Of a DNA stretch of 64,000 nt, positions 3,615-50,913 are shown in pieces. The notes beneath the pieces are model-generated. The model made no database searches. It was not told the DNA's origin and worked only from the letters and a program-made list of their open reading frames with translations. The position numbers and the translations under genes were made by a program. The stretch comes from Candidatus Nitrososphaera evergladensis SR1 (lineage in GTDB: Archaea > Thermoproteota > Nitrososphaeria > Nitrososphaerales > Nitrososphaeraceae): assembly GCF_000730285.1 (NCBI RefSeq), contig NZ_CP007174.1:186001-250000 (forward strand), given 5' to 3'. Every line of letters starts with the position of its first letter. Within the stretch, counting starts at the first letter, position 1.

Positions 3615-5711
<2,097 letters not shown>

Positions 5712-5749
5712 AAAACGCGATGGTGATAATAATAATATGGATATAGACA

Positions 5750-6324: not shown

Positions 6325-6548
6325 ACGTTTTGTATCTAAATATCTTTTGTAACATTGGTAATTTTACAATCCGTTCATCACATGAGAGAACATCTGGCTC
6401 GGAGGCAATCAAAGCTCGCAATGCCGAGTTGGGCCTCAGGCTGCTCAGCCAGGGCGACTTGAGCGACGAGATGTTTACCGTCTTTTCAGCCATGATGGAA
6501 GAAAATTCTAGGTCATGATATTTAAGGGAAATTATTTTTTCAGGAAAG

Positions 6549-6737
6549 CTAGAAATCGGCCAGCGTCATCACAGCTGCGCAAGTCTTACATTTGTAGGTA
6601 GGATACCGAAAAGAGCCACGCATTAAAATCCGCCCCACAATCTGGCACCTGGGACACGCGCCCCGTACAGTTGCTGCCCACTCTCTGACCCTTCTCTTGT
6701 AAACATGTGATTTCGAGCCACATTTACGCTTTGGCAA
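6549..6737 (-). CDS. Small zinc-ribbon protein
   Basis: This 62-residue basic protein has the pairs CPRC (near residue 29) and CKTC (near residue 52), which together make a four-Cys zinc site of ribbon type. The basic N-terminus (MPKRKCGSKSH) suggests nucleic-acid binding. No specific family was recognised. It is a lone gene on the minus strand, downstream of the integrase remnant. Confidence 0.55.
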   Translation of the reverse strand: MPKRKCGSKSHVYKRRVREWAATVRGACPRCQIVGRILMRGSFRYPTYKCKTCAAVMTLADF

Positions 6738-6800
6738 TACAACTTCTTACCCTCCTAGCCTCATAATGGCATGGTTTTGAACAGTAACTGCCCCTTCCTT

Positions 6801-6858
6801 TCCGGATGTGTGCAGGGAAGGTACTTCTGATGATTCAAACGGAGGGCCCTCATCCGGA
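6801..6858. repeat. Inverted repeat TCCGGATG / CATCCGGA
   Basis: Perfect 8-bp arms at 6801-6808 and 6851-6858 enclose 42 bases. It lies upstream of the zinc-ribbon gene on the minus strand. It could be an operator or part of a structured RNA; nothing decides between them. Confidence 0.6.
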
Positions 6859-6911
6859 AATGGATTATCAGGGGAGGGTTGCATGGCCATAACAATTCAC
6901 AACCTATGCGG

Positions 6912-6960
6912 GCCCCGCCCTCTTCAATCCAGATAGGCTATCTCACATAGAGGGCGGGGC
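6912..6960. ncRNA. Long GC-rich hairpin, possible structured RNA
   Basis: Arms GCCCCGCCCTCT (6912-6923) and AGAGGGCGGGGC (6949-6960) are perfectly complementary over 12 bp. The loop itself contains a second palindrome, AGATAG G CTATCT (6931-6943). There is no poly-T after either arm, so a simple terminator is unlikely. No known RNA family was recognised. Confidence 0.4.
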
Positions 6961-7430
6961 ATACATACAGGCTCACGTCAAAGATACGCACGTTCTGTCG
7001 TCACGTAAGTTCGTACGTCTCGTTACCCGTAAACTAAGGCGGGCAAACACGGATACGGACGTTAAGTCTCTACCTAGCATACGTAAGCGACGACCCGCTC
7101 ATTGAGCTTACGAGCAAGTATTGTTATGTAAAATACAATATTTTATTTTTTCGAAAGCGGCAAATGTTAGTTGGCAGTCGCTGAAGGGCATCGAGCGTGC
7201 GTTAGCCCAGGTGGTAGAGCGTGGTCAATATGTCGGTACGTAGAAAAAGAAACAATCAAGAAACCGTATCCCCGCCGCTATGACCAAACGACGGGGATGG
7301 AAACTTAGGATTTAGGTATTCAGGTGTGCACGTTAAGGTGTGAGACACCTGATAGGAAATATTGGAGTTATGAAAATTAAAGATTTTTGACTATGCATCG
7401 GGCGAGCGATGATGGTCCGAACAAAAAATA
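6961..7430. other. Gene-free stretch with several hairpins and a tRNA D-arm-like segment
   Basis: No ORF is convincing. Visible structures are a stem of about 10 bp with one mismatch (7268-7277 with 7289-7298, sequence ATCCCCG), a perfect 7-bp stem CAGGTGT/ACACCTG (7321-7327 with 7345-7351), and AGCCCAGGTGGTAGAGCG at 7204-7221, which resembles a tRNA D arm. No T arm or acceptor stem accompanies the last one. Many CGTA/ACGT words occur at 6975-7090. The segment may hold an uncharacterised RNA. Confidence 0.35.
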
Positions 7431-7442
7431 AAAGAAAGGAAT

Positions 7443-7465
7443 GGGCAGATTTGGGCAATCTGCCC
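7443..7465 (-). terminator. Hairpin terminator of the 7498-7956 gene
   Basis: Perfect 8-bp stem GGGCAGAT / ATCTGCCC with a 7-base loop, 32 bases past the stop codon. On the minus strand it is followed by a T-rich run (TTCCTTTCTTTTATTTTTTG), the arrangement expected of an intrinsic terminator. Confidence 0.65.
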
Positions 7466-7497
7466 CTTGACTTGCCGCTGTTATTTCTTGCATCTTC

Positions 7498-7956
7498 TTA
7501 CACCAAGCTTGTAGTAGCAGTCTTTCCGAAGTATGCCTTGACATGTGGCCGGTACAGATAGTAGATCACCACACCAGCTATGATGATGTTAACTATTGCT
7601 CCAAAGTTCCCGCCTACTAGTGAGACGATGCCCATGATGACGCTTATGGCCGAGAGGATAATAGTGACTGTCCATGCCCATCCTTTTCCTTTGAATAGGC
7701 CCCATGCCACTATGAAGGAGACTATGCCAAGTACTATGAGAACAGCTCCTACTGCTGCGGCGCCTCCACCTAAGAGTCCTACAAGGGCCATTTGGCCGCC
7801 TGCGTTTGGATCGACAGTAGTCATGGTCGGGAGTGCAGAACCTACCGCTGCCAATCCTGTCCCGCCTATCAGCATGATAATGCCGCTTATGACATTCAGG
7901 ATGGCGATTATGCTAACGCCCAACGGTCTCGTTCCCGTTCCAGTTGTCGTTCTCAT
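7498..7956 (-). CDS. Small four-helix integral membrane protein
   Basis: 152 residues with four predicted TM helices: about 13-40, 56-86 (split by a Gly/Ala-rich section), 92-118 and 119-140. The RPLGVSIIAILN start and the WGLFKGKGWAWT loop between helices are typical of a small family of unknown-function membrane proteins common in archaea. There are no catalytic residues to name. It is a single gene with its own terminator. Confidence 0.75.
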   Translation of the reverse strand: MRTTTGTGTRPLGVSIIAILNVISGIIMLIGGTGLAAVGSALPTMTTVDPNAGGQMALVGLLGGGAAAVGAVLIVLGIVSFIVAWGLFKGKGWAWTVTIILSAISVIMGIVSLVGGNFGAIVNIIIAGVVIYYLYRPHVKAYFGKTATTSLV

Positions 7957-37662: not shown

Positions 37663-39519
37663 TTGGCTCAGGGCATTACTAGTGAAAATATAGTAAAAGC
37701 CTTTGGCCGTGGCTTTCCCATGTCGTCAATTATTGCTTCTGCTTCTCTGGTTGTTCTTTGTCTTTTCTATGTTTATTCTGCTGCTACTTTTGCCCACTTG
37801 ACTGTATATCCCCTCATAGATCGCGTTACATACTATACTGTCTTTGGTGTTTACATTACAAATGAATACGTTGATCACGTGGTTCTGGGGTCGCTTTTGA
37901 TTGTATGGTTAGTAGTTTCATTACGGAAATTAAAGAAGATCTACTACTATATTGCAATAGGGATACATGCTGCATTCCTTGTTGCGGGAGCAGCGGCCAA
38001 TTATGCTGTGTTACTTAGTGGCATTGCCCTTGCTTCTCTTCCTGTAATAACCGCTCTTTTGCTTTATAATAGATATTCTCTGCGAAAGATCTTGAAAAAT
38101 CAACAACAGGGCTTAACTCTGAATTATTTTGGCATACTTGGAATAATACTCGGTATCATTGGGCTTGCCTTTGCAACTGCTTCGGTTGTTTCTTCAAATG
38201 CGGTGCAGTCCACGCAGCCTGTGCGTAATTATGCCTATGATGTATTTGTGGTGCTTTCTAGCTTCTCTCCTGTCTTTATCCTGTTACTGATAGCATGCAT
38301 TCCTGTAAAATTAGTTACAGATTCCATATTAAGAGCTTTGAAAATAAGGCTAACACCTCTGATTATCGCTGAAAATCACAAAATGCGCAAAATGCATCGG
38401 ATAACCTATCTCTTGCTAATAGCACTGTCGTCAATCGTCTTTGCAGTTATTCCTCATCTTCCAACCATAAATCCTGACAATCAGAAAATAGGAGTAGATA
38501 CTGGATATTATATCAACTGGGTCACACATTTGAACGAATCAAAGGACCCACAGGAATTCTTGTATAACGCATTTGTCAGTCAGAGTGAAGGAGATAGGCC
38601 TTTTACTTTGATTCTTTTCTCAGTTTTTCAGAAGATTTCTAACGCTGACTTGTTTCTTGTGGTAGAATACTCTTCGATAATTCTTGGACCGCTACTGGCC
38701 ATTTCTGTATATTTTCTTGCCCGAGAACTTGCAGCAAACGATCTCGCATCGCTACTAGCCGCGTTTATGACGGCCATTTCATATCCTACCCTTGTAGGGA
38801 TTTATGCTGGCTTCTATGCAAATTGGCTAGCACTTGTTTTTGGATATGCTTCCTTTATCTTCCTTCTTCGGTTTATTAAGACCATTGAGAGGAAAAATTT
38901 GCTTTTATTTGCTCTCATGATCCTGCTTACTCTCTTAAGCCATGTGTATACGTGGACTATAGTAACTATTGTAACTGGGGCCTATATTGCAGCAATATTT
39001 GTATTCAAGAATAAGTATACTATCTTAAACAAGAGCATTGTTCTTATTGTAATAGTCATTCTTTCTGTTATTGCTATTGACATAGTTCGAGTTAATATTA
39101 CCGGCTCAACTGGCGGAATTGAGAAGGACCTTGAGTTGGCTTATCGCGCCATAGGCGTAGAGCAATTTGCCCTACGCTGGAGCAATCTAAACTATACTGC
39201 AAATAGTTTTGTAGGAGGTCAACTTGGTAATTTTATCATATATGCATTTGCCCTATATTGGCTATTCAAAGTAAGAATCGAAAGCCAGACAATATTACTC
39301 TTAATTTTTCTATCAATCGGATTGATCCCGGTTCTATTTGGCAACTATGTTATTCAAACTAGAGTATTGTATGACATACCTTTCCAAATTCCTGCAGCAA
39401 TAGCATTGTCTAACATCAATAAGAAAGTGAATGTCATAAGCACATTGCTTTTTGTAATAATACTATTTAACATCAGTATTATTGCTGTTTCTAATTTTTA
39501 TCTAGTTCTTCCGCATTAA
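37663..39519 (+). CDS. GT-C-like polytopic membrane protein
   Basis: Up to 618 residues with about 12-14 TM helices. The section IGVDTGYYINWVTHL near 275-290, placed after a TM helix, resembles the acidic first-loop motif of GT-C glycosyltransferases. Other features (LARELA...SLLAAF, FANWLAL) fit this fold. It would transfer sugar from a lipid carrier on the outer face. The ATG at 37720 (MSSIIASASLVVL) may be the true start; upstream only a TTG is available. No operon partner. More AT-rich than neighbouring genes. Confidence 0.7.
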   Translation: MAQGITSENIVKAFGRGFPMSSIIASASLVVLCLFYVYSAATFAHLTVYPLIDRVTYYTVFGVYITNEYVDHVVLGSLLIVWLVVSLRKLKKIYYYIAIGIHAAFLVAGAAANYAVLLSGIALASLPVITALLLYNRYSLRKILKNQQQGLTLNYFGILGIILGIIGLAFATASVVSSNAVQSTQPVRNYAYDVFVVLSSFSPVFILLLIACIPVKLVTDSILRALKIRLTPLIIAENHKMRKMHRITYLLLIALSSIVFAVIPHLPTINPDNQKIGVDTGYYINWVTHLNESKDPQEFLYNAFVSQSEGDRPFTLILFSVFQKISNADLFLVVEYSSIILGPLLAISVYFLARELAANDLASLLAAFMTAISYPTLVGIYAGFYANWLALVFGYASFIFLLRFIKTIERKNLLLFALMILLTLLSHVYTWTIVTIVTGAYIAAIFVFKNKYTILNKSIVLIVIVILSVIAIDIVRVNITGSTGGIEKDLELAYRAIGVEQFALRWSNLNYTANSFVGGQLGNFIIYAFALYWLFKVRIESQTILLLIFLSIGLIPVLFGNYVIQTRVLYDIPFQIPAAIALSNINKKVNVISTLLFVIILFNISIIAVSNFYLVLPH

Positions 39520-39560
39520 CGGCTTTGTGTAATAAGTCGCTCTTGTTAAAAAAGTCCATA

Positions 39561-39575
39561 ATCTGTTTAAAAAGT
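39561..39575. repeat. Left copy of the 15-bp direct repeat flanking the defence island
   Basis: ATCTGTTTAAAAAGT is identical to 48391-48405, with a shorter third copy (CTGTTTAAAAAGT) at 48413-48425. The core TTTAAA could also be a TATA box for the gene at 39651. Confidence 0.7.
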
Positions 39576-39650
39576 CATTTTGAGAACAGTGCGACTAAAT
39601 ATATAGAAATCTTCTATTCTTAAATAACTGGTAGCATTTTACTTTGCTGT

Positions 39651-40211
39651 TTGCCCGAGTACTACTTCGACATCGAGACTGTTCCCTTAGAGTCATTCCG
39701 TGGCGAGGAAAAGGCGGGCACTGTCCCTTCTAAGGCCAAGATAGTAACAATCCAGTATCAGCAACTTCACAGCGTCACGGGCAAGCCGGTCGGCGACCTG
39801 CAGATACTGAAGGAGTGGGAAATTGGAGAACAAGAGATGGTGGAGCAGTTCAAGAAAATCTATCTTGACAAGGGTGTTTGGAACTTCATTCCAGTAGGCA
39901 ACAATCTGGCTTTCGAGTCTCAGTTTATGAAGAGCAAGCTAAAGCAATATTGCAATTTAGAGGGTCTTAGGCTCGGCCACAGACCAATGATCGACCTCAA
40001 GCATGTCTTGGTTATAGCGAATGGCGGCAGGTTCGACGGCTACTCGCGCTTCCTGGGAAAATCAGGGCTGGCAAAGAATATGGAATCGTGGTACTTTGAT
40101 GGCAATTATGACAACATACTAAATTATGTGAAGAAGGAAGCAGAGGATTTTGTGAAGGGTTATTGCATATTGAAGAAGGAACTACCGAGGGTAATAACCG
40201 TCCAATCCTAG
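39651..40211 (+). CDS. DEDD-type 3'-5' exonuclease-like protein
   Basis: 186 residues starting at TTG. YYFDIETVPLE holds the first DxE pair of the RNase H-like DEDD fold, and VGNNLAFESQFMKSKL the second acidic motif. The third motif is less clear (VKKEAEDFVKGYCIL). Related predicted exonucleases act on DNA. Here it opens the defence island, upstream of the methyltransferase gene by about 200 bp. Confidence 0.65.
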   Translation: MPEYYFDIETVPLESFRGEEKAGTVPSKAKIVTIQYQQLHSVTGKPVGDLQILKEWEIGEQEMVEQFKKIYLDKGVWNFIPVGNNLAFESQFMKSKLKQYCNLEGLRLGHRPMIDLKHVLVIANGGRFDGYSRFLGKSGLAKNMESWYFDGNYDNILNYVKKEAEDFVKGYCILKKELPRVITVQS

Positions 40212-40420
40212 ATGTGTTACAGTGTAACTGAGTAAAGCAGAAAAATCATAGTAATCATTTTGCAAGAAGGTTTTCAAATGATCGTTAGTCCGAGGCACAT
40301 TCATGAATCGACCATCGTCGGATTTCGTCTTTTTTCAGCGATTTTTCGCGAAAACCATTTATTCAAAACCAAAAAGTCGAAATACTGGCGGCACATAGGG
40401 ATAGGGGTGGGGCGCAAGAC

Positions 40421-42391
40421 ATGGACAGATTTGTAGACGGCAATTCAGTGAGTTACGTCCCTCCTGGGAAACTACAATCATATCTTACTCAAGAGTTGAT
40501 AAAGGAGACTCCTGAAGAGCATGTCAGGCAAAGAGTCATACGAAGCTTGGTCGAGGAGTATGGCTACGACCTGTCGCAGATAAGGGTTAACTTTAAACTG
40601 GCGGTAGGTGGAAAGCGCCTTCCCGTCGATATAGCAGTTTTTCACGACGGAAAACCACCACTACAAGAAAACATCTACATCATAGTTGAAACAAAACGGC
40701 CAGAGATCAAGAGTACTGATAAAGAGAGTGGCATAGACCAACTGGGAAGTTATGTTTCCAGTGCAATGAATTGCGAATTTGCCCTGTGGACAAACGGTCT
40801 TGAAAAGCTATGCTTTCAGAAGATAGAATCAAAGACAAAGGGACAGAAGTATGAGCCCAAGCCTGTCATTGACATACCCATTCATGGGAAGACAATCGAA
40901 GAGTATGAAAAACCTGATTTTACCCAGCTTCGTCCAGCTACAGAGCTAAAGTCTGTTTTCAAACGTATTAATGATTACATATATGGCCGACAAGGAATGA
41001 GAGAAGACCAAGCATTTCACGAACTGCTCAAGCTAATATTCTGCAAAGTCTATGATGAGAGGTCGGACGAAATCCACTTCTATGTAACGAACAAAGAAAT
41101 TGGCTCAGACATGGGGGCGATGAGTGTAAAAAAACGCATAGACGAATTATTCGACTCGGTTAGAAAACAGTATCAATACATATTCAAAAATGACCCAAAG
41201 ATTCTACTAAATCCGAGAGTCCTTGCTTATGTTGTAGGTCAATTACAGAATTATTATCTGCTCCGAACCGACGCTGATGTAAAAGGCGATGCATACGAAG
41301 AACTTGTCGGTAAGAATTTGCGCGGCAGTCTTGGAGAATATTTCACTCCAAGGAACATTTGCCGATTGGCAGTAAGAATACTCCTTGCGATGCATACGAA
41401 GCAACAGATTCAAGATGCAAAGATAATAGACCCTGCCTGCGGGACAGGTGGATTCCTGATATCTGTCATAGACACAATGAGGCAGTATTATTATGATAGA
41501 GAGATTGCCAAGGACCCTTCGCATGAGAGGGCAATGCAAATCGTAGATGATGAAATTAGAATGTATTGTGCTAGGTGTCTATATGGAATTGACTTTAATG
41601 AAGTTCTGGTTCAAGCAGCGCAGATGAATGAGGTCATCCATGGTAATGGCTCTAGCAATCTTTTCTCGGTGGACTCCCTGAAAGCTCCTGGTGAATGGCC
41701 AATTGATGTTGCGGAAAAAGTCAAGCTTGGCTCCTTTGATATGTTAATGACAAATCCACCATTCGGAGAGAATATTATCATTGATGACCGACATCTCCTA
41801 TCGCAGTATGATCTGGCACACGTCTGGAAAGAAAATGATGATGGAATACTCGAAAGGACTGATGACATTAAATCACGAATGCCTCCACAACTCTTGTTCA
41901 TCGAAAGATCTGTTCAACTGTTAAAACCGAATGGCAAACTGGCAATCGTTCTGCCCGACTCTGTCCTCAGTAATCCAGGGCTAAAGTACGTTCGCCATTG
42001 GATTCTTACGCATACCAAAGTTATAGCCAGCATTGACCTGGCAAAAGAAGCGTTTGAACCTTCAACCGGGACGAAAACCAGCCTTCTGATACTTGAACGA
42101 AAGAACGAGACAGAGATGGCCCTAGAGAAGAAAGGTGGGAAGCTTCCTGACTATGACGTATTCATGGCCATAGCTGGCAAAGTGGGAAAAAACAGTAGAG
42201 GCGACAGCATCTTCAAGAGGACTCCCGAGGGCGAAATGATAGAAATTGAGAAGGAGACATACATAGTAAAAATTGTTGACAGGAGCAAAGTAAGAGAAAA
42301 GCTAGTCACGAAGGAACCCATCTTGGATGATGATTTACCACATATTGGCGATGAATTTGTGGAATGGTGGAATAGGAAAGGCAGGAAATAA
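40421..42391 (+). CDS. hsdM: HsdM-like DNA methyltransferase with N-terminal HsdR-type nuclease domain
   Basis: 656 residues. Residues 30-130 carry the HSDR_N / PD-(D/E)XK layout: Asp70 (PVDIAV), Glu90-x-Lys92 (VETKRP) and Gln107 with Tyr111 (QLGSY). Then the N-6 adenine methylase core follows: DPACGTGGF at 337-345 (SAM binding) and NPPF at 445-448 (catalysis). It ends 1 bp before hsdS. With the nuclease in the same chain, the complex resembles Type IIB/IIG or BcgI-like restriction-modification, so a separate HsdR may not be needed. Confidence 0.88.
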   Translation: MDRFVDGNSVSYVPPGKLQSYLTQELIKETPEEHVRQRVIRSLVEEYGYDLSQIRVNFKLAVGGKRLPVDIAVFHDGKPPLQENIYIIVETKRPEIKSTDKESGIDQLGSYVSSAMNCEFALWTNGLEKLCFQKIESKTKGQKYEPKPVIDIPIHGKTIEEYEKPDFTQLRPATELKSVFKRINDYIYGRQGMREDQAFHELLKLIFCKVYDERSDEIHFYVTNKEIGSDMGAMSVKKRIDELFDSVRKQYQYIFKNDPKILLNPRVLAYVVGQLQNYYLLRTDADVKGDAYEELVGKNLRGSLGEYFTPRNICRLAVRILLAMHTKQQIQDAKIIDPACGTGGFLISVIDTMRQYYYDREIAKDPSHERAMQIVDDEIRMYCARCLYGIDFNEVLVQAAQMNEVIHGNGSSNLFSVDSLKAPGEWPIDVAEKVKLGSFDMLMTNPPFGENIIIDDRHLLSQYDLAHVWKENDDGILERTDDIKSRMPPQLLFIERSVQLLKPNGKLAIVLPDSVLSNPGLKYVRHWILTHTKVIASIDLAKEAFEPSTGTKTSLLILERKNETEMALEKKGGKLPDYDVFMAIAGKVGKNSRGDSIFKRTPEGEMIEIEKETYIVKIVDRSKVREKLVTKEPILDDDLPHIGDEFVEWWNRKGRK

Positions 42392-42392
42392 G

Positions 42393-43991
42393 ATGGCGCT
42401 AGTTTCAAGAGAAGAGCATCAAAATGCGGCGACACTTCGAAGTCTCTCCTTAAAGTCTAGCTGGATTTTCTCTGGCGATTTGAGGCTTGATGCTGATTAC
42501 TACGCTAAAGAAAAAGATCTGGCATTGCGGATACTAAATGACAAACGCTTTTCAACACGTCCCCTCAAAACACTGGTTCAAAGAAAAATGTTTAGTGGTT
42601 ACCGCTTCAAGAGAATTTATGCAGGTGACAAGGAAAAGGGGATCCCTTATCTCAGTGCAACTGAGACCTTGATGTTCAGGCCGAAAAGTGAAAGGTATCT
42701 TTCAAAATCAAAGACGGAGAATTTGGACGATCTCCTCGTAAAAGAAGGTTGGATTCTGATGACATGCTCTGGAGTTATCGGACGGCTTACCATCGTTGAC
42801 AAAAATCTTTCCCAGTTTGTACTCACGCACGATCTTATTCGAATTATACCCAACGAAGAAGAAATTCCTTCAGGTTATCTCTATGCATTTCTCTCAACAT
42901 GGATTGCACAGTCTGTTGTAACCCGGGATCAGTATGGCCTGGCAATAAATCATGTTGAGCCTCACCAGATTGAGGATTTGGCAGTTCCCATCTTGGATAA
43001 GAAAATAATGGGATTATTCGATCATCAAATAAAATATGCTTATTCGTTACGCCAGCAAGCAAATAAGAAGCTAGACGAGGCTGAAGCACTCTTTTACGAT
43101 TCTGCAGGTCTCACCCGGGAAATTGATAACCCACTAAAGAACAGAAAATCGTTTTCACTCAAATCATCCTCGCTGGACACGAGATTAGATGCCTCATTTC
43201 ACAACCCTGTGCTAATAGAGACTTTGCGGATGCTGAGAAAATCCTCGACAAAACTTGTAAAGACAAAAGACTTGGGTAAAGTTATCGTCGCTCCACGTTT
43301 CAAGCGAATCTACGTTGAAAAGGAATACGGCATCCCATTCTTACAGGGAAGCGACTTGCCCATGAACAGGCCATTCAATCTCAAGTACCTATCAAGAAAA
43401 ATGACTGCCAGTCTTAATAATTGGATAATTAAGCCGGGTTGGACACTGGTGACATGTTCGGGAACAATCGGAAGAATTGGGCTGACGACCCCGATTACGG
43501 ATGGGTGGGCTGCTTCACAGCATATTCTCAGAATTATTCCGCATAAGGACAAGCCCTCCGAATTAGAGTATCCTGTAGATGCAGCCTACATCGCTACATT
43601 CCTATCAACACCATATGGATACAATCAGGTTGTTGCAAAGACCTATGGGGGTGTAGTAGATGAAATTGGCGAGAAAGACATTGGCCAGGTTCTGATAGCA
43701 GTAATCCATGACCAGTCAGTACATAATGCGATTTCTCAGCTTACGAGGGAGGCATATGCATTCAAAGATTTGGCTGCTCTAGTGGAACACGAAACGGTAA
43801 GCCTGCTGGAAAACTTACTCGAAGGATCCATCAAGTTTAGTAGCGTTGACAACTTGAGAAAAGCACTCGAAGAGACCATAGAACTAAAAGCAAAAGTGGA
43901 TTCGGTAAACAAAATCTATGAAGGAATCAACGAGGTGGATGAAGGATATGTGGTATCATTTGATGATATCAAGTCAAAATATGGGTTATGA
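42393..43991 (+). CDS. hsdS: HsdS specificity subunit with antitoxin-like tail
   Basis: 532 residues from the ATG at 42393. It contains two homologous halves, each a target-recognition domain ending in a conserved core (EGWILMTCSGVIGR near 112-125, PGWTLVTCSGTIGRIG near 350-365), followed by helical spacers. The last ~35 residues (KAKVDSVNKIYEGINEVDEG then VVSFDDIKSKYGL) differ from a normal HsdS end and resemble the C-terminal part of a RelB/Phd-like antitoxin. A RelE-like toxin gene starts 6 bp later. The TRDs would read a bipartite DNA sequence for the methylase-nuclease. Confidence 0.85.
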   Translation: MALVSREEHQNAATLRSLSLKSSWIFSGDLRLDADYYAKEKDLALRILNDKRFSTRPLKTLVQRKMFSGYRFKRIYAGDKEKGIPYLSATETLMFRPKSERYLSKSKTENLDDLLVKEGWILMTCSGVIGRLTIVDKNLSQFVLTHDLIRIIPNEEEIPSGYLYAFLSTWIAQSVVTRDQYGLAINHVEPHQIEDLAVPILDKKIMGLFDHQIKYAYSLRQQANKKLDEAEALFYDSAGLTREIDNPLKNRKSFSLKSSSLDTRLDASFHNPVLIETLRMLRKSSTKLVKTKDLGKVIVAPRFKRIYVEKEYGIPFLQGSDLPMNRPFNLKYLSRKMTASLNNWIIKPGWTLVTCSGTIGRIGLTTPITDGWAASQHILRIIPHKDKPSELEYPVDAAYIATFLSTPYGYNQVVAKTYGGVVDEIGEKDIGQVLIAVIHDQSVHNAISQLTREAYAFKDLAALVEHETVSLLENLLEGSIKFSSVDNLRKALEETIELKAKVDSVNKIYEGINEVDEGYVVSFDDIKSKYGL

Positions 43992-43997
43992 TACTGG

Positions 43998-44312
43998 ATG
44001 CGCGAAGTCTTCTTTGGGCGTCGAAAGGTCGAAAAAGAATTTTCTAAACTTGATTCTTATACACAAAAGAGGGTAGCAAAGGCAATAGAAGAAATCAGGG
44101 AAAACCCCCAGGTTGGAATTCTTTTAACTGGAGATCTCGCGGGATATTTCAAATATAAATTCGGAAAATTTAGAGCCGTCTATTCTTATGATGAAGAGAA
44201 AATTATGATCGTTGCATTGGATACGCGTGATGACGTATATGATGAGATAAAGCGATACATTAGGGAAGTAGGAAAAATACAAGTGAGTGCGAAAAAAGCC
44301 GTAGACGATTAG
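43998..44312 (+). CDS. RelE/ParE-family toxin
   Basis: 104 residues. VEKEFSKLDSYTQKRVAKAIEEI, then GDLAGYFKYKFGKFRAVYSYDEE and IMIVALDTRDDVYDEI fit the RelE/ParE fold (mRNA-interferase or gyrase toxin). No separate antitoxin ORF lies next to it; the nearest antitoxin-like sequence is the HsdS tail. Last gene of the restriction operon. Confidence 0.8.
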   Translation: MREVFFGRRKVEKEFSKLDSYTQKRVAKAIEEIRENPQVGILLTGDLAGYFKYKFGKFRAVYSYDEEKIMIVALDTRDDVYDEIKRYIREVGKIQVSAKKAVDD

Positions 44313-44379
44313 TTTATCTTACTGGACGATCATTTCTGTTGATATATTTCTCATATAGTAATCCATAATGAATCAGTCG

Positions 44380-44541
44380 TCATTTCTTGCTTACTTTAGC
44401 TTTGATCTTTCCATCTTCAGAGAATATTTCCCATTCGAGCTCATCCTCATGTTTTACCTTGAGAGCATCCGCGACTCCTTCTGGTATTACAGTTTTGACG
44501 CTAGGCGAACCCTTGCGAACGTAATGTACCTTGCTTTTCAA
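44380..44541 (-). CDS. AbrB/MazE-like antitoxin (53 aa)
   Basis: Minus frame from a TTG at 44541 to a TGA at 44380. SKVHYVRKGSPSVKTVIPEG and LKVKHEDELEWEIFS match a swapped-hairpin AbrB domain. It is convergent with the RelE toxin gene and is the only free antitoxin-like gene here, but AbrB domains usually pair with MazF or PIN toxins rather than RelE. Confidence 0.6.
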   Translation of the reverse strand: MKSKVHYVRKGSPSVKTVIPEGVADALKVKHEDELEWEIFSEDGKIKAKVSKK

Positions 44542-44578
44542 TGCTCAAACTACAATACCTACCAGGTCTATTTATCTT

Positions 44579-44633
44579 ATTGGTATATACATAGCCCAAC
44601 AATTATATATAATAGACCAATGTATATACCAAT
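44579..44633. repeat. 14-bp perfect inverted repeat
   Basis: ATTGGTATATACAT (44579-44592) and ATGTATATACCAAT (44620-44633), spacer 27 bases, directly ahead of the transposase gene. It may be a regulatory site of the transposase or the AbrB gene rather than an IS end, because no matching terminal repeat was found after 45705. Confidence 0.7.
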
Positions 44634-44667
44634 ATGCAGCCAAGAGGAGTGCTTTATCATGGCCTAA

Positions 44668-45705
44668 ATGACCAAGCGGAGCAAGCACAAGCGGCGAAAG
44701 GTCACAACCTACTTGGAAGACCGGAGACAGCTTAGGATGACGCAATTTCCTTCTGACAAGCGCCAAACGTATGCTCAAAACTGGAAGGCTTATGATGATG
44801 CACAATGTGGTGAGCAAGATACCTTCTTGAAGCTACTGTCAGATTTGTGTAGAAATGTTGATCAACCTGCCTATGACTTCGGAAGGCCCAGGCTGCCTCT
44901 TTCGGATATGGTTTTTGCTTCTGCGCTGAAAGTGTATTCAACTTTCTCCTTGCGTCGCTTCATGAGCCAGATGCAAAAAGCAGTCGCAGAGGGTCATGTT
45001 GACACTTTCTGTTCTTATTCTTCTGTTTCAAACTATATGCGTAAGAAAGAGCTAACACCGATACTTTACGAACTTATCAAGCTATCAAGCCTTCCACTGG
45101 CTTCCGTAGAAACTACCTTTGGAGTGGATAGTTCTGGCTTTGGTACTTCCTCTCGTTTTGCTAGATATTTCGACTTCAAGCATGGGAAAGACAAGAAGTA
45201 CAAAAAGTGGGTGAAGGCACACATTTGTTGTGGCCTAAAGACAAACGTAATAACTGCAGTCCAGCTTACGGATGGTGACCGTCCTGACCACCCGTACTTT
45301 CAACCATTGTTGGAAAAGACAGCGCAGTCATTTAACCTGAAGGAAGCTGTTGCAGACAAAGCATATCTCAGCAGAACGAATCTCCAGTTTGTAGAAGACC
45401 TCGGTGGAAAACCATTCATTCCCTTCAAGGTGAATAGCCGAGGCTTGGCTATAGGAGCACCTGCCTGGAATAGGATGTACCACTATTTCAACCTCCATAG
45501 AGATGATTTTATGAAGCATTATCACAAGCGGTCGAATGTCGAAACAGCATTTCATATGATAAAGACAAAGTTCAGAGAATATGTAAGAAGTAAGGATGAA
45601 ACGGCGCAATTCAATGAAGTTTTGTTAAAGATTCTATGTCATAATATTTGCGTGGTGATTCAGGAAATACACGAGTTGGGAATACGGGCAGATTTTTCAG
45701 TCTGA
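44668..45705 (+). mobile_element. IS5-like DDE transposase
   Basis: 345 residues. The DDE residues fall in FGVDSSGFG (Asp), VADKAYLSR (Asp) and NVETAFHMIKTKF (Glu), with the Y..R..E-type spacing of the IS5/IS1182 DDE family. The N-terminus has a basic region. No intact terminal inverted repeats or target duplications could be identified, so the ends are not defined. It lies between the restriction operon and the PIN gene and may have displaced material there. Confidence 0.85.
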
Positions 45706-45734
45706 AACCTGGAGAATAATCAAAACTTTTAGAA

Positions 45735-46241
45735 TTAGTATGTATGCGGAATCGTTCCGCCGTTGATTATGTCTAATCCAAATGTCTTCCTGATCTCCTG
45801 TTCAAAGGCAATAAAATCGTGATCAAAAGTCAATAACTCCGTCTTGATATATGTGGCAAATTTGGCGGAAGTAGAAAGAATCCGTAAATCATTTCCGCGC
45901 GGCGGGCCATCTGCAGGACTATTTTTTTTCTTTATTGATACCCACACCTGAATTTGGAGGGTATTTCCTCCCGACCAAATGTTTGCGTACATGTTTTCGA
46001 CGTTTGGCATCAAGGAAACATCATCAGGAAGTATGCCATAGTTTTTGTGAAGTCTACTAAAATTCTCAAGGGATTTATGGACTAGCAGTCTGATTTGAAG
46101 TGGAGTTAATTTTAAATCTCCTCCCTTCTCGGCAAGAATATCCCAAATTTTCTTATGTGTTTCGGATTCGACTGTCTTAATTATCGCAACTTTACTTATC
46201 TCTGAGTCGAGATAATACTTCATTGATTTGTAATTCTGCAA
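45735..46241 (-). CDS. PIN-like protein with no canonical start for its N-terminus
   Basis: The 168-residue ORF begins MQNYKSMKYYLDSE at a TTG. The same frame is open further upstream and codes VVPDTNACLSYSINHK, the first PIN strand with the catalytic Asp (46301-46299). No ATG, GTG or TTG precedes it; only ATA/GTA codons are available near the stop of the upstream gene. The C-terminus LLTFDHDFIAFE has the PIN-like Asp pair. Thus the real protein probably starts near 46313 by coupled or non-standard initiation. Possible toxin of the neighbouring gene. Confidence 0.55.
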   Translation of the reverse strand: MQNYKSMKYYLDSEISKVAIIKTVESETHKKIWDILAEKGGDLKLTPLQIRLLVHKSLENFSRLHKNYGILPDDVSLMPNVENMYANIWSGGNTLQIQVWVSIKKKNSPADGPPRGNDLRILSTSAKFATYIKTELLTFDHDFIAFEQEIRKTFGLDIINGGTIPHTY

Positions 46242-46309
46242 TTGAATAGGTATGCCGTGGATTTTATGGTTTATTGAATAGCTGAGGCAGGCATTAGTGT
46301 CTGGAACTA

Positions 46310-47170
46310 CTATGCTGTCAGATTTAAATTGGAAAGGGACTGCGCTAGCCGTTTCGCTTCTTCCTCCGTGAACGCCTCGTCAAGAGTACGTTCGAAAGGA
46401 TTATTATAGATTTTTCTTTTATCACAATATCCTAGAAGATAAGACTCTAACTCTGCAATCTCCAAGAATCTTGGACGTAGCAATTCCGAATTTGCAGGCG
46501 GCCTTACATCCTTTGATGTATCGGCAATCTTGTGAATGAGTTCTCTGGAAAGGTAGAGTGCCACTCCTCTCTTGGCTGTATCTGATACGCTTTCGAGTGC
46601 CTTCAAGATATTGCCGATTATTTCTAACGTAGAGAGAACAAACGCGGATTGCCGATTATTATACGTCCTACTGCATTCAATTAAGGGAGGTAAGATGTTC
46701 TCCAGTTCTTTTTTTACCTCGGCGGCCAACTTTAGTGAATCCTTAGGGTCAATGCCAAACTTGGAGTAGACTTCATCGAGAAGTTCGCATCTGGTTCTTG
46801 CCAATCGTGATTCAATAATATTTTCTACTTTCTCTAATGTACGGGGCAGAAGTTCTTTTTTCATTTTTTCGATCTCCTTCTTACCATTGCTGGTCAAATA
46901 GAAAGAAAAGTAATGTTGACCATAATTCATCATTGATTCATTTTCGACTATAGTTACTAAGCCTGAGTAGGCAGATAAATCAAGCTCCAATAGGTCTGAG
47001 AATGGCCCATAATGATATTTTCTGAAGTCATATTCGTCTATGTGTGCCAAGACTTGAGTAAGAAATGTTAGCTTTTGGAATTTGGTTTTGCCGTGGATTA
47101 CACCATCAGATTTATCGAGTATGAGCAAAGGAAGCCAGAGTCTTTCAGGGATTTCAGTATTCACAGGCAA
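46310..47170 (-). CDS. YwgA-like hypothetical protein
   Basis: 286 residues. The section HGKTKFQKLTFLTQVL and FRKYHYGPFSDLLELDLSAY, a short motif K-L-x-FL followed by YGPFS, resembles YwgA/Panacea-related wing-like domains found in defence and TA contexts. The second half is helical (LREL). Its stop overlaps the open frame of the PIN-like protein. Function unknown. Confidence 0.5.
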   Translation of the reverse strand: MPVNTEIPERLWLPLLILDKSDGVIHGKTKFQKLTFLTQVLAHIDEYDFRKYHYGPFSDLLELDLSAYSGLVTIVENESMMNYGQHYFSFYLTSNGKKEIEKMKKELLPRTLEKVENIIESRLARTRCELLDEVYSKFGIDPKDSLKLAAEVKKELENILPPLIECSRTYNNRQSAFVLSTLEIIGNILKALESVSDTAKRGVALYLSRELIHKIADTSKDVRPPANSELLRPRFLEIAELESYLLGYCDKRKIYNNPFERTLDEAFTEEEAKRLAQSLSNLNLTA

Positions 47171-47484
47171 AACCTCCTATTACAGGATACGTACTACTGT
47201 TAAGTATATCTACACATGAGCTAGTTATCTGACTCTTATTGCATTGACAAACCATTTGCGACGCCCTTTGAACAGAAATTGGTGCCGTCCTTTCGTCGCA
47301 GTTTGAACCAAAACAGCATAGTCATACGGTAGTTGTTATTCTATAGACTATAAAACTTTTCTATATAAGGGTGCTCAAAATCCGCCATTGTTTGAAAAGT
47401 CCCACTAGAATCTCGGATAGCAAGAGACGAAGCAATCTCGCTGCGGGTTAAGACATCAATATTTAAGCGCTGCGGGTCTCGAAC
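47171..47484. other. Gene-free region
   Basis: No ORF seen. AT-rich sequence with likely divergent or upstream promoters of the YwgA-like gene. Confidence 0.4.
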
Positions 47485-48360
47485 TCATTTTGCTTTAGTT
47501 TGCACTGTTGTAGATTGATGCCAAACTTCATCGAAGTACTTCAGCAGCTTTCTCATAACATTTGCATCTGAAATTATTGCGCCGGTATTGTACTGCTTCA
47601 TGAGACCATCTTGGGTTAGGTCGGCTGACGAAATAAGAGCCTCTTCATTATCCCTTATTATTATTCTAGAATGAACGAAGTTGTTGATTCTATGGTTATC
47701 CTTTAGATTATCCTTGATGAAGCCAAAAGCCTGCCTTTTATCACTTGTAAATTCATCTCTGGCTCTTGTAATGATTTGAATGTTGGCGCTCTTGCTTTTT
47801 TCAAGGATATCCTTAACGAATGACATGTCCGCGTATGGCGAGATAATCTTCAATGTATGATTGCAATTACAAATCATCCGTTTTGCCTCATCCTCCAGCG
47901 ACCTGTCATGCGGCGGAATTGTTGTCACGAGGTCTAGTTGTCCTGTTTGTTCTTCCCACTCTTCGTCTATGCGAATCGCAACTCTCTTTGAGCTGAAAGT
48001 GGAATATCGGTTATCCAATAGGAAATGAAGTGATCCGCCTGAATGCACTTGCAAAGTAACCTGTCCTGAAGGTACCTGTCCTGAATAATGGGAATATTGT
48101 ACAGGGCAGAGATAAGCGTTGTTATTTCTTAGACAGTTTAGAGCCCAGGTGACAAACTGATCTCTACTTAGCACATACAACCGTATATCGTCAACAGTGT
48201 TGCTCTGATTAATGTGCAGGACGGTGAAAGATACAGAGATTTTATGATTAGTCTTGCCCAAGTGATCCAAATCATATGAAAGGACAGATATTCCATTTAG
48301 GCTAGTAGGAATATCTAACATTCCATCATAAAGGATTCTGAACTGTTTTCTTGAACCCAT
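47485..48360 (-). CDS. Phospholipase D-like protein
   Basis: 291 residues. The C-terminal half has ICNCNHTLKIISPYADMSFVKDIL, then NNFVHSRIIIRDNEEALISSADLT and a YNTGAII ending, the PLD-like core with conserved Ser-Ala-Asp-Leu-Thr. The HKD Lys is replaced by Arg (HSRI). Only one HKD motif is visible, so it would act as a dimer, or be inactive. PLDc nucleases are common in phage defence. Confidence 0.7.
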   Translation of the reverse strand: MGSRKQFRILYDGMLDIPTSLNGISVLSYDLDHLGKTNHKISVSFTVLHINQSNTVDDIRLYVLSRDQFVTWALNCLRNNNAYLCPVQYSHYSGQVPSGQVTLQVHSGGSLHFLLDNRYSTFSSKRVAIRIDEEWEEQTGQLDLVTTIPPHDRSLEDEAKRMICNCNHTLKIISPYADMSFVKDILEKSKSANIQIITRARDEFTSDKRQAFGFIKDNLKDNHRINNFVHSRIIIRDNEEALISSADLTQDGLMKQYNTGAIISDANVMRKLLKYFDEVWHQSTTVQTKAK

Positions 48361-48390
48361 GTTCCGTCAGGCAATTTCATTCTGGAGAAT

Positions 48391-48425
48391 ATCTGTTTAA
48401 AAAGTAAGCTGGCTGTTTAAAAAGT
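48391..48425. repeat. Right copies of the island direct repeat
   Basis: ATCTGTTTAAAAAGT at 48391-48405 is identical to 39561-39575; a 13-bp copy follows at 48413-48425. It is 60-90 bp ahead of a truncated integrase. Candidate attachment site. Confidence 0.7.
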
Positions 48426-48484
48426 ATCGACAGTTACCGACTTTTTACACAAAGCCTCTCCATACTGGAGCTAGGGCTTTTGCT

Positions 48485-49096
48485 ATGGCATCCATGAGCC
48501 GTGATAGAATAATCTTTTCTCCATTGTTCAGAGTGGAACAGTTCGAGTCGAAGATAAAGCGTGGTGATTGGTATCTTACAAGAGAAGGCAAATGGTGGGT
48601 AAAATACCCCACAGAAGAGTGCAGAGCCATCATTGAAACTGCCTACGACAGACTACCAAAACAAAGGAAATTCCTGTTCTTTGAAGATGCCAAGAGCGAC
48701 AAAGCGAAATACTTACAAGCTAGTTATTTTATGCACAAGATGGCTGTTCGATTCAAAAGGATATTTTCAGACCTTGATAAAAGCAGCTGGCTCAACGAAA
48801 AGACTAGAATCTATGCACTTGGCGATGGTTTGTACTTTGGCGGACACTCCTTACATCTGTTCAGGCATACAATGGCTCAATATTATCTCGCAGCGACAAA
48901 TTGGTCGCTTGCTTATGTGGCTAGCCTAGATGGGTGGGAAAATACCGAGATATTGAACAAGTGCTATGGCGGCATTCCAGAATATATCAAGGCACAGATA
49001 GCAAATTCAATCCATGTTAGGTTTGATACATTAAATCTTAACAGTACTTCAATGACTACAACAGGCTATTCGATGTTTTGTCCTAGCATTCGATAG
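48485..49096 (+). CDS. Truncated tyrosine recombinase
   Basis: 203 residues. GGHSLHLFRHTMAQYYL is the His-x-x-Arg box and ILNKCYGGIPEYI contains the candidate nucleophilic Tyr, both in the order found in phage-type integrases. The N-terminal SAM-like domain and the first Arg box were not found, so only the C-terminal catalytic half is present. It is placed directly after the direct repeat, as expected for an island integrase. Confidence 0.65.
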   Translation: MASMSRDRIIFSPLFRVEQFESKIKRGDWYLTREGKWWVKYPTEECRAIIETAYDRLPKQRKFLFFEDAKSDKAKYLQASYFMHKMAVRFKRIFSDLDKSSWLNEKTRIYALGDGLYFGGHSLHLFRHTMAQYYLAATNWSLAYVASLDGWENTEILNKCYGGIPEYIKAQIANSIHVRFDTLNLNSTSMTTTGYSMFCPSIR

Positions 49097-49118: not shown

Positions 49119-49910
49119 TCAGCTCAACAAGTCTTTCAATGAGATTTTTAGCTCTGCCAGAATTGTCTCCAGCTCAGGCAGCGGCTCCGGGCTCAGTCTG
49201 GTAAGCCATGTGTCAAGGTAAGGTTCCAGTTTCTTTGCAATGTCAGCCGGAAACATCTGCTCTACGCCTGTAAAGGTAACTCCTTTTGACTTGCATTTCT
49301 GAAGGAAAAGCTCTTTCAACTCTTGCTTGTCGAACTTGCGAATCTTTAGCAGCCTCCATACATCATAGTAATCTCTGATCTTTCCCCGTTCGATGATTGC
49401 CCTCATCTTTTCTGCAAGTAGATTATCAAGCGCATAGACTTTGACTGCAAATTTTGGATAATCGTACGTGTGTGGAACTGATTTTCTTACGACCTTGCCA
49501 ATAAACGGTTCTCTGGAGATTTCTATTTTGATGTTGTTCTTGCTCAGCGGTCCTGTGTACTTGATTTTGCCCCGGAAAAATTCTGGATTAGCAAGAGGGT
49601 CTCCCTTCATCTCGATGTTTATGCCACTTGCCTTCTGCACGATTCCGGGTACCTCGTACATTACGCCTGTGCCCAGAACCAGCATCTCACTCTCATCGAC
49701 AGCAGTAAAGTCCAAGTCTTCTGAAAGACGCCATCTGCCGGGAAAGTATATCTTGGACAGTGCAGTGCCGCCCTTGAACGCCAGAGAGCCTGAAGCAGCA
49801 CTTGATGCTATTCCAAAGAGTATCCATCCAAGAACATAATCTTTTTCCACCACATCGACAGGCAGATTTCTTTCTCTGGCCACGGCTCTGAGTTCGCGAT
49901 CTGTTATCAT
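49119..49910 (-). CDS. AbiEii nucleotidyltransferase toxin (type IV)
   Basis: 263 residues. FKGGTALSKIYF and RLSEDLDFTAVDESE are the GG and DxD nucleotidyltransferase motifs of AbiEii/AbiGii toxins, with EKMRAIIERGKIRDYYDVWRL matching the third conserved section. Such toxins add nucleotides to RNA and act in phage abortive infection. The gene lies 4 bp after the AbiEi gene in the same operon. Confidence 0.9.
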   Translation of the reverse strand: MITDRELRAVARERNLPVDVVEKDYVLGWILFGIASSAASGSLAFKGGTALSKIYFPGRWRLSEDLDFTAVDESEMLVLGTGVMYEVPGIVQKASGINIEMKGDPLANPEFFRGKIKYTGPLSKNNIKIEISREPFIGKVVRKSVPHTYDYPKFAVKVYALDNLLAEKMRAIIERGKIRDYYDVWRLLKIRKFDKQELKELFLQKCKSKGVTFTGVEQMFPADIAKKLEPYLDTWLTRLSPEPLPELETILAELKISLKDLLS

Positions 49911-49914
49911 TCTT

Positions 49915-50730
49915 CTAGTGCTCCATCCATTCTTTTAGCTCTTTATCGGATCTGTTTATTATCAATCCGTATTTCTTGGAGTACCCGAGGACTTTCTTTG
50001 GACCCAGAGGGTCAAGCCACATGAACCCCTTGAATCTGTTAGAGGCTATCCTGTCAGCTATTTCACTTTCGATGTTAAGCAATTCAAGCGCATAGCCAAG
50101 CCTTCTAGTCACTACACTAATTCCTAGCTTTTTACCATACTCTATAAGTCTATCAAAGTTCAGCTCATTCCTTGCTTCCCATATGCCTTTTACTGCTTCA
50201 TCAAGCCCGCCGCAATACTTGGGATACATCAAGCAGTCCAGCACCGTCTTTTCCCTAGATGATATCTTGAACTTGGTACCGGCTATTTCGCCTTCTTCAA
50301 AGCCAAAGAACCTTTTTTTTGCAAGCTTGATGAATTTGAAGACATTCGGTCCATATTCCAAGTCTCTTCTCCTCTTGGTCGTGGCAACGAACACTACGCG
50401 CGGTACCTGTTCTGTCATTCCCCAGTAGTTGAGAGCAGAGTAAAAGCCAACATAGTATTCGTTCAAAATGTTAGGCAGTATCAAAAATGGTACCTCTGAC
50501 CACAGTCCTTCGTATCCTGCCTTGGCAGGGATGAGAAGGTACTTGCCTCTCTCTATTTCCTCTATCCTCTTCTTTTTCTTGAGTCGGTAGATGACGTTCC
50601 ATACCGAGGCGTCAGAGGTTCGAAGTATTTCTTTGGCATCCTTCATTGAGAAGATGCTCTTGTTTTCCTTCTCGAGAGTAAAGAGCAGCCTGAGCTCATT
50701 TGCCCCCAAGTTTAAGTTCTGTGTGCTCAT
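49915..50730 (-). CDS. AbiEi-type antitoxin/regulator
   Basis: 271 residues from the Met at 50730 (MSTQNLNL), which fits the family better than the upstream MLYKS. The N-terminal winged helix (NELRLLFTLEKENKSIFSMKDAKEIL, then VIYRLKKKKRIEEIERGKYLL) is the AbiEi DNA-binding domain, and the rest follows the AbiEi/DUF6088 layout. It would repress its operon and neutralise AbiEii. Confidence 0.88.
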   Translation of the reverse strand: MSTQNLNLGANELRLLFTLEKENKSIFSMKDAKEILRTSDASVWNVIYRLKKKKRIEEIERGKYLLIPAKAGYEGLWSEVPFLILPNILNEYYVGFYSALNYWGMTEQVPRVVFVATTKRRRDLEYGPNVFKFIKLAKKRFFGFEEGEIAGTKFKISSREKTVLDCLMYPKYCGGLDEAVKGIWEARNELNFDRLIEYGKKLGISVVTRRLGYALELLNIESEIADRIASNRFKGFMWLDPLGPKKVLGYSKKYGLIINRSDKELKEWMEH

Positions 50731-50913
50731 ACTCTTGTATAACAAGAGTCTAGTTACACAAGTATTAATAGATGACGTTGATATATGAAAAATTAGGATT
50801 TCCTAAACTCCCTTTCCTAGGTTAGATTGTTGTGTGAATAATTGTCTGAAACAAGCTTGACTTCTAATAGACAACACTAACTCGTAATCTGTCTCCTTGC
50901 AATGCCTAGCGAA

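What the first reader, a model, noticed from the sequence alone, without database searches (positions are those of the whole stretch)
43800..44312. HsdS with an antitoxin-like tail followed directly by a RelE toxin
The last ~35 residues of HsdS (VDEG then VVSFDDIKSKYGL) look like the C-terminal end of a RelB/Phd antitoxin, and a RelE/ParE toxin starts 6 bp later with no antitoxin gene of its own. If correct, the specificity subunit neutralises the toxin. Loss of the restriction system would then free the toxin, giving a built-in guard. I know of no described Type I-like system with this fusion.
Basis: partly seen in the sequence, partly recalled or inferred. Interest (0 to 1): 0.78.

Follow-up and report, generated by a model that had tools for sequence, protein, structure and literature searches.

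The report
Restriction subunit with antitoxin tail
In this microbe the DNA-recognition protein of a restriction system ends in what looks like an antitoxin, and the gene right behind it looks like the matching toxin, so the cell may be poisoned if its restriction system is lost or disabled.

Summary
Observation confirmed. The specificity subunit (42393-43991) ends in about 52 residues that 16 of 16 related specificity proteins lack. They resemble the C-terminal part of RelB antitoxins: the tail alone has antitoxin RelB1 as best PDB hit (E=0.075; 14 of 40 identical; 0 of 20,000 shuffles as good), and against 3,772 ORF C-termini its 22 best non-self hits lie just upstream of RelE-like genes. A RelE-like toxin starts 6 nt after the HsdS stop; no other of 211 frames on the 8.9-kb mobile element matches the antitoxin profile. 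An unrelated family of large methylases (probable restriction enzymes) repeats the design: 10 of 13 loci have an antitoxin-like tail, 9 of those 10 have RelE 3-9 nt downstream, 0 of 3 tail-less loci do. One, L203, is an intact IS1595-type transposon with transposase, methylase and RelE and no other antitoxin-like frame. Most likely the restriction protein is the antitoxin. Binding, toxicity and release are inferred, not shown. Folding was inconclusive for the window pair, mildly favourable for L203. New variant of guarded restriction and of RelBE.

The parts
40421..42391 (+). Methyltransferase with N-terminal HSDR_N_2 nuclease-type domain (MAD2-like), partner of the S subunit
   Evidence: N6_Mtase PF02384 E=1.3e-31, HSDR_N_2 PF13588 E=2e-24; NF047738 MAD2 596.9 bits, below the 720 cut-off
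42393..43991 (+). Specificity subunit HsdS (MAD5-like), 532 aa, with C-terminal extension
   Evidence: Methylase_S PF01420 E=1.3e-9; NF047740 MAD5 384.5 bits, below the 400 cut-off; alignment A1
43824..43988 (+). RelB-like tail of HsdS (residues 478-532), absent from related S proteins
43998..44312 (+). RelE-like toxin, 104 aa, 6 nt after the HsdS stop and in the same frame
   Evidence: PF15781 E=1.2e-11; RelE chains at E=0.003-0.008; RelE fold
39521..39539 (+). Left terminal inverted repeat of the element
   Evidence: 4 matches in the genome at up to 2 mismatches, the four element ends
48438..48456 (-). Right terminal inverted repeat of the element
39519..48456 (.). 8,938-bp stretch, 100% identical to a second copy at genome 956493-965430 (minus strand); the element proper probably begins at 39521
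   Evidence: GTTGACGAC directly repeated at both ends of the second copy
44380..44541 (-). 53-aa ORF on the opposite strand with weak PrlF/AbrB-type antitoxin similarity (rival candidate)
   Evidence: PrlF E=0.011, doc_partner E=0.029, both far below cut-off
44668..45705 (+). IS5-like DDE transposase inside the element
   Evidence: PF01609 E=4.4e-22; NF033579 E=6e-33, below its cut-off

Best explanation
The specificity subunit of this R-M pair doubles as the antitoxin. Its C-terminal tail of about 50 residues is the C-terminal, toxin-binding part of a RelB antitoxin attached to HsdS, which takes the place of RelB's own N-terminal half. It holds the RelE-like toxin whose gene starts 6 nt after its own. 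While the R-M complex is present the toxin is sequestered; if the element is lost, or HsdS is degraded, inhibited or titrated away (for example by a viral anti-restriction protein), the toxin is freed and cuts translated mRNA, causing growth arrest. Shown by computation: tail similarity, RelE identity, adjacency, no other antitoxin of this type on the element, recurrence in a second family. Inferred: binding, neutralisation, toxicity, and the trigger for release.
For: (1) Tail alone against 177,635 PDB sequences: best hit antitoxin RelB1, 9g12_C (E=0.075); against the RelB1 stretch printed, 14 of 40 ungapped identities and 0 of 20,000 tail shuffles as good. A profile of the tail plus 11 antitoxins finds 9g12_C (5.5e-6) and 3g5o_A (9.7e-4), antitoxins solved with RelE partners. 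(2) Tail against 3,772 ORF C-termini: the 22 best non-self hits lie just upstream of RelE-like genes. (3) Profile of 22 antitoxins against HsdS: E=2.5e-5 for that one protein, matching only residues 463-527; the real tail ranks 1 of 20,001 against its shuffles. (4) 16 of 16 distinct related S proteins lack the tail. (5) Only HsdS matches among 211 frames of the element. (6) Second family, 13 loci: a leave-one-out tail profile finds the tail in 10 (domain E 7e-14 to 3e-28) and not at all in 3; RelE follows in 9 of the 10 and 0 of the 3 (Fisher p=0.014). That tail profile has one strong match in 10,585 other ORF C-termini, the stand-alone gene directly before a RelE in L189 (6.9e-8; next 0.25). 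(7) L203 is an intact transposon with transposase, methylase and RelE, and only the methylase matches either antitoxin profile among 90 frames. (8) L203 tail plus toxin folded as one chain: pLDDT 86, pTM 0.80, tail ordered.
Against: The fold of window tail plus toxin left most of tail residues 39-58 near or below pLDDT 50; the forced 3-residue linker and lack of tail rows make this weak either way. The PDB hit of the tail alone is not significant (E=0.075), with an unrelated rat RAP chain at 0.078. One of 20,000 shuffles scored 15.1 bits against 15.3 for the real tail, and with a mixed profile of 49 upstream genes the tail ranked only 21 of 20,001. In a later set of 14 loci the best 6 of 411 C-termini were again genes upstream of RelE, but with E-values of 0.099 to 3.3, and one of the six (L229) repeats a locus already seen (L054). 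TA genes also lie beside R-M genes without any fusion: relative L047 has an annotated RelE/ParE toxin with its own ParD antitoxin near its tail-less S gene, on the opposite strand, which my toxin profile missed. Family 1 has one example, in two identical copies. Rows in both families are related by descent (L197 and L204 are nearly identical in the tail), so the p-value is optimistic. Nothing was tested at the bench.
Confidence: 0.74

Rival explanations
1. The tail is an ordinary HsdS C-terminal helix and the toxin is an unrelated neighbour in a defence island.
For: HsdS proteins end in coiled-coil helices (general knowledge); the first part of the tail was modelled as one long helix. A relative, L047, has an ordinary ParDE-type pair beside a tail-less S gene.
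Against: No such tail in 16 of 16 related S proteins; similarity to RelB-type antitoxins in particular; same pairing in a second family. The toxin of L047 has its own antitoxin, the window toxin has none of this type on the element.
Confidence: 0.08
2. The fusion neutralises the toxin but has no guard role: it is only an addiction module that keeps the mobile element in the cell (or a relic with a dead toxin).
For: The module lies in a stretch with terminal inverted repeats present in two identical copies; L203 is cargo of an IS1595-type transposon. That RelBE modules stabilise mobile DNA is general knowledge.
Against: Addiction and guard are not exclusive. The toxin frame is open and keeps the five residues invariant in the alignment (P37, L43, R59, Y62, Y81). 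Recurrence in two families suggests selection for the link itself.
Confidence: 0.15
3. The toxin's antitoxin is the 53-aa PrlF/AbrB-like ORF on the opposite strand (44380-44541) or a gene elsewhere in the genome.
For: Weak PrlF and doc_partner matches.
Against: Opposite strand, TTG start, no match to the antitoxin profile. A search of the genome with the toxin at E up to 1 found only the two copies in the two elements, so no sister locus lends an antitoxin; the genome was not searched for lone antitoxins.
Confidence: 0.03

Closest known systems
RelBE toxin-antitoxin systems (e.g. PDB 9g12, 3g5o)
   Same: RelE-fold toxin; antitoxin C-terminal part similar to the HsdS tail; antitoxin encoded directly upstream of the toxin
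   Different: No stand-alone antitoxin: the N-terminal part of RelB is replaced by a specificity subunit of about 480 residues
PrrC-EcoPrrI (anticodon nuclease linked to a Type IC R-M system)
   Same: RNA-cutting toxin held silent by an R-M system encoded with it and activated when restriction is inhibited (review passages, PMC12707154)
   Different: The toxin is a HEPN-type nuclease (PMC3710099, passages), not RelE; no transplanted antitoxin piece is mentioned in the passages I saw
Immunity-suicide coupling hypothesis of Makarova et al. 2012 (PMC3506569)
   Different: A hypothesis; the passages I saw do not show an R-M protein with an antitoxin piece. The loci here show that piece directly
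MADS defence system proteins MAD2 and MAD5
   Same: The methylase and S subunit are relatives of MAD2 and MAD5
   Different: Both score below the curated cut-offs. Of 8 annotated plasmid relatives, 3 have a protein kinase gene right after S; none has RelE directly after S in the same direction

Membership tests
Type II RelBE toxin-antitoxin | RelE-fold toxin | tested here: met
Type II RelBE toxin-antitoxin | Antitoxin C-terminal region of RelB type encoded directly upstream of the toxin | tested here: met
   adjacency
Type II RelBE toxin-antitoxin | Small separate antitoxin protein | tested here: not met
   only the HsdS ORF matches the antitoxin profile in the element
Type II RelBE toxin-antitoxin | Toxin is poisonous and neutralised by the partner | not testable with these tools
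   needs expression assays
Type I R-M (HsdR, HsdM, HsdS) | M and S subunits side by side | tested here: met
Type I R-M (HsdR, HsdM, HsdS) | Separate HsdR translocase-nuclease beside M and S | tested here: not met
   no HsdR-type match among the element proteins scanned; a nuclease-type domain is fused to M. The rest of the genome was not searched for HsdR
MADS | MAD2 and MAD5 above curated cut-offs | tested here: not met
   596.9 of 720 and 384.5 of 400 bits
MADS | Remaining mad genes in the locus | tested here: inconclusive
   no other mad model in the PADLOC rows shown for the element proteins scanned (not every ORF scanned, lists capped at 25)
PrrC-type R-M guard | Toxin beside an R-M locus without an antitoxin gene of its own | tested here: met
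   for antitoxins of this profile
PrrC-type R-M guard | HEPN anticodon nuclease as toxin | tested here: not met
   toxin is RelE-like
PrrC-type R-M guard | Toxin activated when restriction is inhibited | not testable with these tools
   needs infection or anti-restriction assays

The most novel reading that the evidence does not exclude
There is a recurrent, transposon-borne class of restriction systems in which the DNA-recognition polypeptide is itself the antitoxin of an adjacent RelE toxin. Having arisen at least twice in unrelated families, it senses the presence and integrity of the restriction enzyme and releases the toxin when the enzyme is lost or blocked by an anti-restriction protein: the molecular form of the immunity-suicide coupling proposed in 2012.
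Probability: 0.5. Interest if true: 0.86.

Novelty: new variant of a known kind. Interest (0 to 1): 0.76.

Why it matters
It was proposed in 2012 that defence loci lack antitoxins because their own subunits restrain the linked toxins (PMC3506569, abstract and passages). These loci give that idea a concrete, removable part: a RelB-like piece of about 50 residues on the recognition protein. Deleting the tail should unleash the toxin, so the idea becomes a simple co-expression experiment. If the tail responds to anti-restriction proteins, it is a compact tripwire against viruses that disarm restriction; in any case it would make the R-M cargo of a mobile element hard to lose.

Tried and rejected
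Family searches of the tail (Pfam, NCBIfam, PADLOC) gave nothing significant. A profile from 49 mixed upstream genes (several antitoxin classes, a few toxin fragments) was too mixed: the tail ranked 21 of 20,001. The fold of window tail plus toxin as one read-through chain did not place the tail. VIA-align on the L203 model covered only the toxin part, so it says nothing on tail docking. Searches for this S protein or toxin with a tail elsewhere gave none: S in viral contigs, plasmids, phages, 398 genomes of the phylum, 70 of the family, 345 of the phylum of L003; toxin in viral contigs, plasmids (39, upstream genes not inspected) and 400 genomes of the order. The L187 methylase had no plasmid or phage match at E<1e-40; a looser plasmid search with L203 gave 699 records, none covering 80% of the query (109, neighbours not inspected); the L203 toxin had none at E<1e-8. 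Literature searches (open-licence PMC; listings) showed no paper that I could recognise as describing an R-M protein with an antitoxin tail plus RelE; of PMC2701414, PMC12707154, PMC3506569, PMC12839542, PMC12255303 and PMC3710099 I saw passages only. Rejected: the tail as a generic HsdS helix; the opposite-strand PrlF-like ORF as antitoxin.

Full report
What is there. The window lies in an unnamed 2.95-Mb single-contig genome; that it is an archaeon close to Nitrososphaera is my own reading of its genes and size, not a tool result. At 40421-42391 is an adenine methylase with an N-terminal HSDR_N_2 domain; one nucleotide after its stop begins a specificity subunit (42393-43991); 6 nt after that stop begins a 104-aa RelE/ParE-family protein (43998-44312). 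Methylase and S are relatives of MAD2 and MAD5 of the MADS system but score below the curated cut-offs.

The tail. Aligned with nine related S proteins, the window protein has the common core up to ...VSLLENLLEGSIKF and then about 52 residues with no counterpart. I widened this to 16 distinct relatives (18 loci matching at E<1e-40; L206 repeats L003 and L212 repeats L208; some, such as L045, L112 and L211, match only half of the S model): 0 to 14 residues follow the last core match. None had a match to my RelE profile in the stretch fetched, but the profile is not exhaustive: L047 has an annotated RelE/ParE toxin with its own ParD antitoxin on the opposite strand about 170 nt beyond its S gene. 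Eight further, more distant HsdS matches from the same family as the window's genome were listed; one stretch (L101) held a weak RelE match (E=0.002), not followed up.

Identity of the tail. I searched 398 genomes of the phylum with the toxin, not the tail; 91 had a match at E<=0.01. From 69 loci (29, 40) I read the gene upstream of the toxin. Many of these small genes end in a pattern like ET[LI]E[IV]L...I.EG..D[VI]..G.V.[ST][FY].E; the HsdS tail reads ALEETIELKAKVDSVNKIYEGINEVDEGYVVSFDDIKSKYGL. Searching the 55-aa tail against 3,772 ORF C-termini from all loci then held, the 22 best non-self hits lie just upstream of RelE-like genes (for two of them, second loci in L015 and L017, the RelE was recognised by eye); hit 23 is unrelated (E=1.9). 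In a later set of 14 loci the best 6 of 411 are again such genes, with weak E-values (0.099 to 3.3) and one of them, L229, a repeat of L054. A profile of 22 antitoxins matches HsdS only at 463-527, E=2.5e-5; the real tail outranks 20,000 shuffles, narrowly (15.3 against 15.1 bits for the best shuffle), while a mixed profile of 49 upstream genes ranks it 21st. Against all PDB sequences the tail alone has RelB1 (9g12_C) as best hit at E=0.075, with an unrelated chain at 0.078; the profile of tail plus 11 antitoxins finds 9g12_C at 5.5e-6 and 3g5o_A at 9.7e-4, then unrelated chains from 0.059. With the RelB1 stretch so found the tail has 14 of 40 ungapped identities and 0 of 20,000 shuffles score as high; for eight other antitoxins the count was 0 to 392 of 20,000.

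The toxin. Its family profile finds RelE structures and the predicted fold matches RelE of Thermus, Mycobacterium, E. coli and Methanococcus. P37, L43, R59, Y62 and Y81 are invariant in the 12 sequences aligned. That RelE proteins cut mRNA on the ribosome is general knowledge; activity of this one was not tested.

No other antitoxin of this type. Of 211 frames in the element only the HsdS ORF matches the antitoxin profile below E=0.01. The genome holds only two copies of the toxin at E up to 1, one in each copy of the element. A 53-aa PrlF/AbrB-like ORF on the other strand is a weak candidate.

The element. Window 39519-48456 occurs a second time, 100% identical, at 956493-965430 on the other strand. 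Both copies end in the inverted repeat GGCTTTGTGTAAWAAGTCG, whose only four matches in the genome (up to 2 mismatches) are these ends. The second copy is flanked by a direct repeat GTTGACGAC; the window copy is not. An IS5-like transposase lies inside.

A second family with the same design. To collect RelE homologues for folding I scanned viral contigs for DNA encoding the G[DK]YR motif (90 loci, RelE found by profile in 20). In three of the 20 the gene 3-9 nt upstream is an 807-831 aa protein with an N6_Mtase domain (E 3e-35 to 5e-37). I read its N-terminus as a restriction-type nuclease and its C-terminus as a specificity domain by eye; Pfam confirms only the methylase, and PADLOC lists Type I methylase and Type IIG models over that part. 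A search with this family gave 13 loci (including those three). A leave-one-out tail profile finds the tail in 10 of 13 and gives no hit in L200, L201 and L205. RelE starts 3-9 nt after the stop in 9 of the 10 (L198 truncated); L199 has the tail, and after it only a short stretch that by eye resembles the start of RelE; the three tail-less loci have no RelE after the gene. The tail profile has one strong match in 10,585 other ORF C-termini: the stand-alone gene directly before a RelE in L189, E=6.9e-8, next 0.25. An IS1595-type transposase lies directly upstream in five loci, a fragment in L197, a more distant one beside tail-less L200, and none was found in six (Pfam check for L203 and L204 only). 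In L203 inverted repeats bracket transposase, methylase and RelE (3982-7948) and an 8-bp AGTTGATC lies on both sides; among 90 frames only the methylase matches either antitoxin profile. L196 has inverted repeats identical over 24 bases around the same three genes (3985-7909), without a target repeat. A transposon that carries RelE should bring its own antidote, and here the methylase protein is the only candidate found; I regard this as the strongest argument for function.

Structure. Window tail and toxin are in frame, so I folded them as one chain under a code reading TGA as tryptophan: toxin well predicted, end of the tail not. For L203 the same approach with rows that hold both parts gave pLDDT 86 and pTM 0.80 with the tail ordered. 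No interface score or coordinates were available; I count this as mildly favourable.

Mechanism and novelty. Best reading: HsdS is the antitoxin, the toxin gene follows it so closely that their translation is probably coupled, and loss or inhibition of HsdS frees the toxin. Binding, toxicity and release are inferred. Functional relatives are PrrC-EcoPrrI and PARIS (PMC12707154, passages) and the coupling hypothesis (PMC3506569, abstract and passages). In searches of open-licence papers (listings) I recognised no description of this architecture; subscription papers and preprints were not searched.

Noticed in passing
39519-48456: Mobile-looking stretch with inverted repeats in two 100% identical copies; it also carries a DrmC-like PLD protein (47485-48360), a protein with weak DarG/PDC-M19A similarity (46310-47170) and an IS5-like transposase.
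   Followed up: partly
L203:3982-7948 and L196:3985-7909: IS1595-type transposons whose cargo is a large methylase (probable R-M enzyme) plus RelE; L203 has an 8-bp target repeat.
   Followed up: partly
43989-43998; L185, L194, L196, L197, L203, L204: The toxin frame continues the frame of the gene before it, after one stop codon, in the window and in 6 of 9 family-2 loci (1 in 3 expected); stops are TGA, TAG or TAA. Shared descent or a possible read-through fusion.
   Followed up: no
L053, L219, L222: Proteins of about 234 aa with an antitoxin-like end directly upstream of RelE homologues.
   Followed up: no
L021, L024, L055, L057, L061, L063, L078, L079, L087: RelE homologues preceded by ORFs of 168-248 aa instead of a small antitoxin gene.
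   Followed up: no
49119-50745: AbiEii/AbiEi-type pair on the minus strand just outside the element.
   Followed up: no
48485-49096: ORF beside the right end of the element that by eye resembles a tyrosine recombinase C-terminus; no Pfam match.
   Followed up: no
L199:4706-4800: Family-2 protein with the tail but only a short RelE-like remnant (by eye) after it, as expected if toxins are lost before antitoxins.
   Followed up: partly
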